Below, in pieces: positions 7,171 to 9,207 of a DNA stretch of 64,000 bases; position 1 is the first letter of the stretch, and every line of letters begins with the position of its first letter. Source of the stretch: Hyphomicrobium sp. (GTDB taxonomy: Bacteria; Pseudomonadota; Alphaproteobacteria; Rhizobiales; Hyphomicrobiaceae); assembly GCA_030148425.1 (NCBI GenBank), contig JASBTM010000008.1, positions 310,001 through 374,000 on the forward strand, written 5' to 3'. The notes below the pieces were generated by a model. The model was not told where the DNA came from. It saw nothing but the letters and a program-made list of their open reading frames with translations, and searched no databases. The translations under genes and the position numbers were made by a program.

Positions 7171-9207
7171 CTATTCGGCAGCAACCTCAATGTCGGTGGC
7201 CTTCTTAAGATGCTTGGGCGGTTCGGCCGCGTTTAGATTGGTGATGCCGAGTCTCTCGAAGAAAACTACGTTCCGTTTTCTCGCATCCCTTAGAAGTTTC
7301 CCATAAGGCACAATTTCGACAAATGCATTCGGGTTCTGCGAGTATCCAAAATATCCGTCGCCATCTGGCGTTTTCAGTAATCGTCCAATAATCCGCTCTT
7401 CTAATTCACGCGTTATATCGCACACCACGTAGCAGTGGAACGCGGTGCCTTCGTTGATGCCCCGAATCGCCTTTCCCTTAACGTCCACGAGACCTGGGGT
7501 GGTCTTAAGAGTATTGACGTAATGCAGTACTTGTTGGACAGGATCTTTTCCTTTTGAATAATCCTCGCGCATCGGTCGCTTAAATTCTACGATCACCACT
7601 GCGTCTGCACCGTCGGTTTCGCGCCAAGCAACGCAGCTGCCAAAGAAAAATGCAATGTCCGGCCTCTCATCCGACTGCAATGCCGTAAATTTCTTAATCT
7701 CGAGGTCTGAGGAAAAATAGTGGGAGAACGCCAGCCGATCGTCCAAAATCCAAAGATTATGATCATCGATCGTCAGCAAATTATTATCTACTCGCATCGG
7801 ACAAATGAGCTGATGGAGCGCCTCTTCTCTTTTATGACTTTCCTTCTCTGGGTCGTCATACTCCAAGAAACTCTCAAAAAGGTCCAAAACGGCCTTTCGG
7901 CGCACCACATATTCGGCAAGGGCTCCTTTTTTTTCGTCTCGGATATACTGTTCGTACTCGGATATTTTTTGATCCAGAGCTTCGCCAATCGCCGCCTTCG
8001 TGGTGATCTCTTTTCCAACCTGAATAAATTTCTTTTGCCTGCGGAATCGATTGCGGGCCAATTCAACAAAAATGTCTTCTTTCTTGATGCAGTTCGGCTG
8101 CAGCCCTTCTGTGAACTCGCCTAGTTCGCGCTCGACATACAAGAATTGCGGATTTTCGGAGATAATTTCTCGCGCTACGTGAACTTTCTGGTCCAGGGTA
8201 GCTCTGACGTATTCGTGGAGATATTGCCGAGCCCCACGAGCAACAGCCTTTTTAACGGCGTCAAGCTCTTTGCCCTCTAGCGTGAATGCTGAGCGCTCCG
8301 GGTTTACATGTCGGTCCAAATATTCTCCCGACACGCAGCCTAAGTAAACGTATTCACCATCAAGCGTCTTCAGGCCGAGTTGTTCATCAAGCGGATATTC
8401 AACGACTGATCGGTTATTCCCAGAAAGAAAAGCAAAGTTGCTGCCACCTGCATGAAAGCGCGCAATTTTCTTGCATTTGAGATTCCACAGCTCAAGCTGT
8501 CGGACAATACCAGCGTCGTCCACTTCGATAGTTGAAGTGGATTGATCCACGATGGCCTCTGTGAAAATCTCCTCGACGTTGTAGGTATCTTCTCCATCCA
8601 CAAGGGTCATTCGCGGAGCATTGCCCCCGATGAAGAGAGGCACAAAATGCGAAACGATCCGGTGCGCTATAGTCTCGCCTTTGGCTGGGCAGCGCCGGTC
8701 AAAATCTGAAGCGAAAGTGCGAAAGGAAATTCTTGTCAGTGATCGTTTTTCGCTTACTTCCACGGGAACTTTGTCGGGCACTTGGTTCTCTTCGGTAAGC
8801 TGAAAACCAAACTCTCGCCGTAGATACTTCTTATCCTGACGATAGACACTATTGATAGAAATCTGCTTGAAAACCTTGAGCCAAGCCAACCGGCCGACCC
8901 CTTTTCCGCCTTTGCTTTCTTTCCAACGAGAATCTGGGGTCAAAAATGATCGATAATTGTCATCATTGAAGCCTAGACCATTATCTTCAACGTCAAATCC
9001 TGTGATAATCGGGTCGTCGGTATGGTCTAATCGCACAACAGTAATTTTGATTTGGCCCTTCTTCGATGTATCGGCCGCGTAGACTTCGGTCACAGATTGG
9101 ATGCTGTTACTTATTGCCTCCATCAGAGGCAATAACGCTCCTTTTTCAGATGGCCTAATAGGCAATCGGCTGACACGTCCAACGATATCGCTCTTGAGGT
9201 CGGCCAT
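7171..9207 (-). CDS. GHKL (HSP90/MORC-type) ATPase fused to C-terminal PD-(D/E)XK-like nuclease domain; candidate defence/accessory protein
   Basis: N box LMEAISNSIQSV, G1 DVEDNGLGF, G2 GGKGVGRLA; C-terminal PDIAFFFG..VVIVEFKRP..QQVLHYVNTLK; ATG at 9207 preceded by GGAGG on the minus strand; visibly AT-richer than its neighbours. Confidence 0.85.
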   Translation of the reverse strand: MADLKSDIVGRVSRLPIRPSEKGALLPLMEAISNSIQSVTEVYAADTSKKGQIKITVVRLDHTDDPIITGFDVEDNGLGFNDDNYRSFLTPDSRWKESKGGKGVGRLAWLKVFKQISINSVYRQDKKYLRREFGFQLTEENQVPDKVPVEVSEKRSLTRISFRTFASDFDRRCPAKGETIAHRIVSHFVPLFIGGNAPRMTLVDGEDTYNVEEIFTEAIVDQSTSTIEVDDAGIVRQLELWNLKCKKIARFHAGGSNFAFLSGNNRSVVEYPLDEQLGLKTLDGEYVYLGCVSGEYLDRHVNPERSAFTLEGKELDAVKKAVARGARQYLHEYVRATLDQKVHVAREIISENPQFLYVERELGEFTEGLQPNCIKKEDIFVELARNRFRRQKKFIQVGKEITTKAAIGEALDQKISEYEQYIRDEKKGALAEYVVRRKAVLDLFESFLEYDDPEKESHKREEALHQLICPMRVDNNLLTIDDHNLWILDDRLAFSHYFSSDLEIKKFTALQSDERPDIAFFFGSCVAWRETDGADAVVIVEFKRPMREDYSKGKDPVQQVLHYVNTLKTTPGLVDVKGKAIRGINEGTAFHCYVVCDITRELEERIIGRLLKTPDGDGYFGYSQNPNAFVEIVPYGKLLRDARKRNVVFFERLGITNLNAAEPPKHLKKATDIEVAAE

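What the first reader, a model, noticed from the sequence alone, without database searches (positions are those of the whole stretch)
7171..9207. Single-gene GHKL ATPase fused to a PD-(D/E)XK-like nuclease: candidate uncharacterised anti-phage or DNA-processing system
Seen in sequence: a 678-aa protein starting MADLKSDIVGRVSRLP. It has a full GHKL (Bergerat) ATP-binding set: N box EAISNS, G1 DVEDNGLGF, G2 GGKGVGRLA. Its C-terminus has PDIAFFFG-x(n)-VVIVEFKRP followed by QQVLHYVNTLK, which fits D...ExK plus the QxxxY helix of RecB/Cas4-like nucleases. Established knowledge: GHKL/MORC ATPases act as nucleotide-driven clamps, and PD-(D/E)XK domains are common effectors of prokaryotic immunity. 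Inference: one polypeptide could couple ATP-dependent dimer closure to nucleolytic attack. I believe related 'ATP-binding protein' entries exist in databases, but I know of no mechanism for this exact architecture.
Basis: partly seen in the sequence, partly recalled or inferred. Interest (0 to 1): 0.82.

Follow-up and report, generated by a model that had tools for sequence, protein, structure and literature searches.

The report
MORC-like ATPase–nuclease phage defence gene
A bacterium carries, in a chromosomal slot where its relatives keep various antiviral systems, one gene that joins an ATP-driven clamp to a DNA-cutting domain; it very probably cuts invading phage DNA, and it belongs to a family that was described in 2008 and has a tested relative.

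Summary
The gene lies on the minus strand (9207→7171, 678 aa). It has complete GHKL motifs and a C-terminal PD-(D/E)XK nuclease signature. E461, D517, E541 and K543 are invariant in 85 relatives, and Q559 and Y563 nearly so. The architecture is not new: it is that of 'paraMORC3' (Iyer et al. 2008). A GHKL–nuclease protein of the same layout, VcSduA, was shown in 2025 to block phages, and this needed both its ATPase and its nuclease residues.

The gene is accessory. It occurs in 1 of 22 genus genomes as this lineage, and has a GC content of 48% against 60% around it. Relatives lie on 57 plasmids and 49 viral contigs, often beside integrases or restriction systems.

The strongest new evidence is positional. 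In the same genus, the slot after uvrA holds a different low-GC cassette in each relative: PARIS (twice), CBASS (twice), a Thoeris-type TIR protein and several PADLOC candidates. Here the slot holds this gene.

Most likely it is a single-gene restriction factor: ATP-driven dimer closure around foreign DNA licenses cutting. That mechanism is inferred. It is a new member of a known kind. It fails the Pfam Shedu domain test, so I do not file it as Shedu.

The parts
7171..9207 (-). GHKL-PD-(D/E)XK single-gene protein, 678 aa (paraMORC3-type)
   Evidence: 375 scored homologues
8713..9207 (-). GHKL (Bergerat) ATP-binding domain, residues ~1-165
   Evidence: Pfam HATPase_c_3 E 3.4e-4; 46/46 relatives hit HATPase_c; full-length model matches TRAP1, ParE, GyrB, Topo VI-B and MORC4
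9106..9120 (-). N box E30..N34
   Evidence: invariant 25/25
8971..8985 (-). G1 box D75-N-G-x-G79
   Evidence: invariant 25/25 for D75, G77, G79
8890..8910 (-). G2 box GGKGVGR, residues 100-106
   Evidence: G103, G105, R106 invariant
8218..8712 (-). S5-like transducer domain, residues ~166-330, with invariant R266 and R305
   Evidence: secondary structure of the model, Foldseek, conservation; that R305 is the phosphate-sensing finger is inference
7843..8217 (-). long helical linker, residues ~331-455
   Evidence: model
7243..7842 (-). C-terminal PD-(D/E)XK-like nuclease domain, residues ~456-655
   Evidence: AF2 of the C-terminal part pLDDT 84.7, pTM 0.82; best PDB match McrC, E 0.024; conservation
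7825..7827 (-). E461, first acid of the E-D-ExK set
   Evidence: 85/85
7657..7659 (-). D517 of the PD motif
   Evidence: 85/85
7579..7587 (-). E541-x-K543
   Evidence: 85/85
7519..7533 (-). Q559xxxY563 helix
   Evidence: 84/85 and 83/85
9218..9222 (-). GGAGG ribosome-binding site, 10 nt before the start codon
7120..9324 (.). low-GC cassette in the variable slot; no DNA homology in any of 20 regions fetched from same-genus genomes
4108..7119 (+). uvrA, left edge of the slot, conserved in the genus
9380..9448 (.). genus-wide interspersed repeat at the right edge of the slot
9691..10017 (+). small conserved ORF, right-hand flank of the slot in several relatives

Best explanation
This is a horizontally acquired, single-gene anti-phage (or anti-mobile-DNA) restriction factor of the paraMORC3 kind. 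As in other GHKL ATPases, two subunits bind ATP through the N-terminal domains and close into a dimer; the S5 domain senses the gamma-phosphate and the helical linker forms a clamp around DNA. Closure on foreign DNA (for example linear, replicating or unusually structured phage DNA) would bring the C-terminal PD-(D/E)XK domains onto the duplex, and they would cut it. Shown here: domain content, invariant catalytic residues, mobility, position in a defence slot. Shown elsewhere for a relative of the same layout (VcSduA): phage protection that needs both the ATPase and the nuclease residue. Inferred: clamp closure, the cue that marks foreign DNA, and that this very protein is active.
For: Motifs and invariance. 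The N-terminal part folds like dimerising GHKL ATPases: TRAP1, ParE, GyrB, Topo VI-B, MORC4. The C-terminal model is confident. Its Foldseek matches are weak, but the best ones are restriction-type nucleases: McrC, NucC, BsmI, SgrAI, HamA. In 12 of 58 relatives the C-terminus matches HSDR_N (best 1.2e-4), in 4 SduA_C (3.3e-4). Patchy occurrence: 1 of 22 genus genomes in this lineage plus one distant 27% copy; about 7 of 399 phylum genomes with strong full-length matches. 57 plasmids, 49 viral contigs, one temperate phage beside its integrase. Neighbours include type I R-M, CBASS, AbiE, an Abi protein and TIR. GC 48% against 60%; 69 of 76 homologues are also lower in GC than their flanks. The slot after uvrA holds PARIS, CBASS, a ThsB-type TIR, PDC-M28, PDC-S35 or PDC-S39 in congeners, while ordinary window genes score nothing except UvrA itself, and one marginal hit at 5e-4. 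VcSduA E27A and K557A abolish protection (PMC12137116).
Against: No direct activity data for this protein. PADLOC has no model that recognises it. The nuclease fold is supported mainly by residues and weak matches (best Foldseek E 0.024; no Pfam hit in the window protein). I could not align it with VcSduA itself. About a third of the congeners' resolved slots hold genes of unknown role, an RT, or only a weak defence match.
Confidence: 0.72

Rival explanations
1. It is an accessory component of restriction-modification systems: a GHKL regulator or nuclease that works with an R-M system, here encoded elsewhere in the genome.
For: In a minority of relatives it directly follows type I hsdM/hsdS or type III mod/res genes on the same strand (9 and 5 of 118 loci; Salinivibrio L011). 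Iyer et al. 2008 placed most MORC/paraMORC genes in R-M operons and allowed that lone copies act with unlinked R-M systems.
Against: In the window and in most loci no R-M gene is adjacent. VcSduA works alone in E. coli (PMC12137116).
Confidence: 0.12
2. It is a toxin or abortive-infection effector, or an element-borne exclusion or addiction gene, rather than a nuclease that spares the host.
For: Frequent location on plasmids and prophages beside integrases and toxin-antitoxin genes; Shedu systems can be toxic on heterologous expression (PMC12904381).
Against: VcSduA protects cultures at all tested multiplicities, which indicates direct restriction (PMC12137116). No antitoxin partner is conserved.
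Confidence: 0.09
3. It is a DNA-repair or chromosome-processing enzyme linked to the neighbouring uvrA.
For: It lies next to uvrA and has MutL-like ATPase architecture.
Against: It is absent from nearly all congeners, which have other, mostly defence, genes at the same spot; low GC; on mobile elements.
Confidence: 0.03
4. The nuclease domain is catalytically dead or not a nuclease, and the protein acts only as a DNA clamp (MORC-like silencing or compaction of invading DNA).
For: Fold match to known nucleases is weak.
Against: E-D-ExK-QxxxY is essentially invariant; K557A kills VcSduA activity (PMC12137116).
Confidence: 0.04

Closest known systems
paraMORC3 family (Iyer, Abhiman and Aravind 2008, PMC2292703)
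   Same: N-terminal GHKL, S5 domain, C-terminal RE-fold domain with E-D-ExK; widely and sporadically distributed; a subset stands alone without conserved neighbours
   Different: No difference found. The original paraMORC3 sequences were not on hand for a direct alignment.
VcSduA, GHKL-containing Shedu type I-D of V. cholerae (PMC12137116)
   Same: Single gene; GHKL with essential Glu near residue 27 (here E30) and PD-(D/E)XK Lys near 557 (here K543); mobile; patchy (~1.2% of genomes reported, about 2% here)
   Different: VcSduA is annotated with DUF4263; the window protein gives no SduA_C hit even at E 10. VcSduA itself was not aligned. A V. cholerae member of the window family, which may be a different gene, is 30% identical over the full length.
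Shedu SduA (PF14082; e.g. PDB 8ps4, 8ti8)
   Same: PD-(D/E)XK nuclease effector controlled by an N-terminal domain of the same polypeptide
   Different: No GHKL domain in classical SduA; profile comparison and Foldseek give no specific link; only 4 of 58 relatives show weak SduA_C similarity
MutL, MORC and GyrB/ParE GHKL ATPases
   Same: Same ATPase plus S5 module; nucleotide-driven dimerisation expected
   Different: Different C-terminal effector; MORC signature motif not tested
McrBC (McrC nuclease)
   Same: Best solved-structure match of the C-terminal domain (E 0.024); NTPase-controlled nuclease
   Different: McrB is an AAA+ GTPase on a separate polypeptide; match is weak

Membership tests
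paraMORC3 | GHKL ATP-binding motifs (N, G1, G2) | tested here: met
paraMORC3 | S5-fold domain after GHKL with a conserved basic residue | tested here: met
   AF2 model and Foldseek matches to GHKL-S5 proteins; R266 and R305 invariant
paraMORC3 | C-terminal RE-fold domain with E-D-ExK | tested here: met
   E461-D517-E541xK543 invariant in 85; fold support modest
paraMORC3 | Groups with the original paraMORC3 sequences | not tested
   Sequences of the 2008 paper were not on hand
Shedu (SduA) | SduA_C/DUF4263 domain (PF14082) | tested here: not met
   No hit for the window protein at E<=10; best relative 3.3e-4; hhalign with a small SduA profile gave only a 15-column match
Shedu (SduA) | PD-(D/E)XK catalytic set | tested here: met
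Shedu (SduA) | Homotetramer that senses and cuts near DNA ends | not testable with these tools
   Needs biochemistry; [quoted passage not shown]
VcSduA-like GHKL defence protein | Single polypeptide with N-terminal GHKL and C-terminal PD-(D/E)XK | tested here: met
VcSduA-like GHKL defence protein | Full-length homology to VcSduA itself | not tested
   VcSduA sequence not obtained; a V. cholerae family member (P0128), possibly a different gene, aligns 30% over the full length
VcSduA-like GHKL defence protein | Anti-phage activity that depends on the ATPase and nuclease residues | not testable with these tools
   Plaque assays needed
MORC proper | GhXhhpXXRhl motif in the S5 domain | not tested
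   Motif search not run

The most novel reading that the evidence does not exclude
The window clade is a GHKL-gated nuclease lineage separate from Shedu: a one-polypeptide, MutL/MORC-like ATP clamp that closes on foreign DNA and then cuts it. It would be a minimal prokaryotic counterpart of MORC silencing, and it would occupy a defence hotspot after uvrA that has not been described before.
Probability: 0.3. Interest if true: 0.62.

Novelty: new member of a known kind. Interest (0 to 1): 0.43.

Why it matters
The family is common (2,499 scored relatives for one query) and mobile, yet PADLOC 2.0 has no model for it and Pfam barely sees it, so a probable defence gene is being missed in genome annotation. 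It would also test how a MutL/MORC-type ATPase can tell foreign DNA from self, a question shared with eukaryotic MORC silencing. The uvrA slot gives a simple place to look for further unknown defence genes: some congeners carry low-GC genes there that no library recognises.

Tried and rejected
Reading the gene on the plus strand: rejected, full of stops. Longer start at 9303: not adopted (conserved start and ribosome-binding site at 9207). uvrA-linked repair role: disfavoured by the variable slot. Insertion by 3'-end duplication of uvrA in this genome: tested, no duplicated uvrA end after the gene, though relatives carry such fragments. Shedu membership by Pfam, hhalign, PDB profile search and Foldseek: not met or no link; the hhalign test is weak because the SduA profile had only 5 rows. 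Conserved partner gene: none found in 118 loci; recurrent neighbours are integrases or recombinases and R-M genes. Top phmmer PDB hits (GTP-binding proteins, E 0.05) judged chance.

Full report
Observation. The protein has 678 residues. A GGAGG 10 nt upstream and the shared start of close homologues support the ATG at 9207 over the upstream start at 9303. The nearest homologue with a named source, 76% identical, is from Hyphomicrobium sp. D-2. The window is therefore probably from that genus or a close relative; this is an inference.

Anatomy. The N-terminal 165 residues carry the N, G1 and G2 boxes of GHKL ATPases. Pfam sees the ATPase only below its cut-off, but all 46 aligned relatives hit HATPase_c. 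An AlphaFold2 model of the whole protein (pLDDT 77.6) matches TRAP1, ParE, GyrB, Topo VI-B and human MORC4 over the ATPase and S5 region. A helical linker follows. The last 200 residues were poorly modelled in the full-length run. Folded alone with 85 diverse relatives they give pLDDT 84.7 and pTM 0.82. E461, D517, E541 and K543 are invariant in all 85, with Q559 in 84 and Y563 in 83. The best solved matches are restriction-type nucleases (McrC, NucC, BsmI, SgrAI, HamA), but the best E-value is only 0.024. Single relatives match HSDR_N (12 of 58, best 1.2e-4) and SduA_C (4 of 58, best 3.3e-4). I therefore call it PD-(D/E)XK-like with fair but not complete confidence.

Distribution. The family is broad. 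The genome collection gave at least 519 relatives, from Alphaproteobacteria, Bacteroidota, Firmicutes, Actinobacteria, cyanobacteria and one archaeal MAG. It is patchy: in the window's genus only the window genome has this lineage, and one other has a 27% relative. In 399 genomes of the phylum about 7 have strong full-length matches; most of the other 'matches' are short GHKL hits. Relatives lie on 57 plasmids, 49 viral contigs and one temperate phage, next to its integrase. The window gene is the lowest-GC 2-kb stretch of the whole 64 kb (48% against 60%), and 69 of 76 homologues are also at least 2 points lower in GC than their flanks.

Neighbourhoods. In annotated plasmids the gene sits beside type I restriction genes, CBASS, AbiE, Abi and TIR genes and integrases. 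Across 118 loci no partner is conserved. The recurrent neighbours are integrases or recombinases, HsdM (9 loci) and type III R-M genes (5 loci). In the window the gene stands alone.

The slot. uvrA and the small ORF at 9691 are conserved in the genus, but DNA homology to 20 fetched congener regions stops at the end of uvrA (7034-7120) and resumes at 9324-9380. Between these points each congener has something else, usually low in GC. PADLOC recognises, with full-length or specific matches: fused AriAB (3e-196) and separate AriA and AriB (PARIS), two CBASS cyclases (5e-136 and 1e-114), the second with a patatin effector (1e-159), a ThsB-type TIR protein (2e-68), PDC-M28 A, B and C, PDC-S39 (2e-126) and PDC-S35. 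An AbiU-like gene and PDC-M41A also occur after uvrA, with less clear right-hand flanks. Of 12 congeners with both edges resolved, eight hold such a gene; the others hold an RT with a transposase, a CHAT-domain protein (weak match) or unknown genes. As a control, ten ordinary genes of the window gave no PADLOC hit except UvrA itself and one marginal 5e-4 hit. This defence slot is the best new evidence that the gene is a defence gene. A text search of the held papers found no description of it, which does not prove that none exists.

Known relatives. Iyer, Abhiman and Aravind (PMC2292703) defined paraMORC3 in 2008 as GHKL plus S5 plus a C-terminal RecB/RE-fold nuclease with E-D-ExK, and noted standalone copies. 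PMC12137116 (2025) showed that VcSduA, a GHKL–PD-(D/E)XK protein, blocks phages in E. coli and V. cholerae. E27A and K557A each abolish this, cultures survive at all multiplicities, and a dimer model places the ATPase below a clamp-like middle domain. Its authors file it under Shedu type I-D. The window protein works like VcSduA by layout, but it gives no SduA_C hit even at E 10, and structure and profile searches do not single out Shedu. I do not file it as Shedu. A V. cholerae member of the window family, which may not be VcSduA, aligns over the full length at 30% identity.

Mechanism. Best supported: ATP-dependent dimerisation closes a DNA clamp, and the C-terminal nucleases then cut. Shedu EcSduA senses DNA ends (PMC12904381); whether this protein does is unknown. 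The nuclease requirement and host survival are shown for VcSduA only. Clamp closure and the self/non-self cue are inferred.

Verdict. A real, intact, mobile and very probably anti-phage gene of a known kind.

Noticed in passing
window 7120-9324; congener loci L132, L133, L135-L138, L140-L143, L145, L148: The slot after uvrA is a defence hotspot in this genus: each congener has a different low-GC cassette (PARIS, CBASS, ThsB-type TIR, PDC-M28, PDC-S35, PDC-S39 and unknown genes).
   Followed up: yes
L132 3733-3891, L133 3676-3768, L134 1556-1702 and 2398-2535, L145 5596-5667: Several congeners carry partial copies of the uvrA 3' end inside or beyond the slot, as if elements had entered at that end more than once.
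   Followed up: partly
window 9380-9448, 10281-10350; also 7044-7094, 10204-10252, 11072-11122: Two kinds of short interspersed repeats flank the slot and recur throughout congener regions; one lies in the 3' end of uvrA, coding its C-terminal tail. They could serve recombination.
   Followed up: partly
L148 1020-2213, L136 11807-12979: Low-GC genes in the same slot that neither Pfam nor PADLOC recognises: candidates for new defence genes.
   Followed up: partly
L014 2485-4509 (phage vB_RanS_PJN03): A family member in a temperate phage, beside the integrase, is annotated as N-acetylmuramoyl-L-alanine amidase; this looks like a misannotation.
   Followed up: partly
L011 3182-12013 (Salinivibrio plasmid): A family member follows type I hsdR/M/S genes as the last gene of the run; near-identical proteins (about 96%) occur in V. 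cholerae, V. parahaemolyticus and Aeromonas, which suggests a widely travelling element.
   Followed up: no
L007 13275-14489, L015 9959-11140: DUF3800 genes lie next to or near family members on two unrelated plasmids.
   Followed up: no
L002 1477-3450 (same genus, another locus): A second, distant GHKL-nuclease gene (27% identity) with weak SduA_C similarity (E 0.0077) occurs in a congener; it may be nearer to Shedu.
   Followed up: partly
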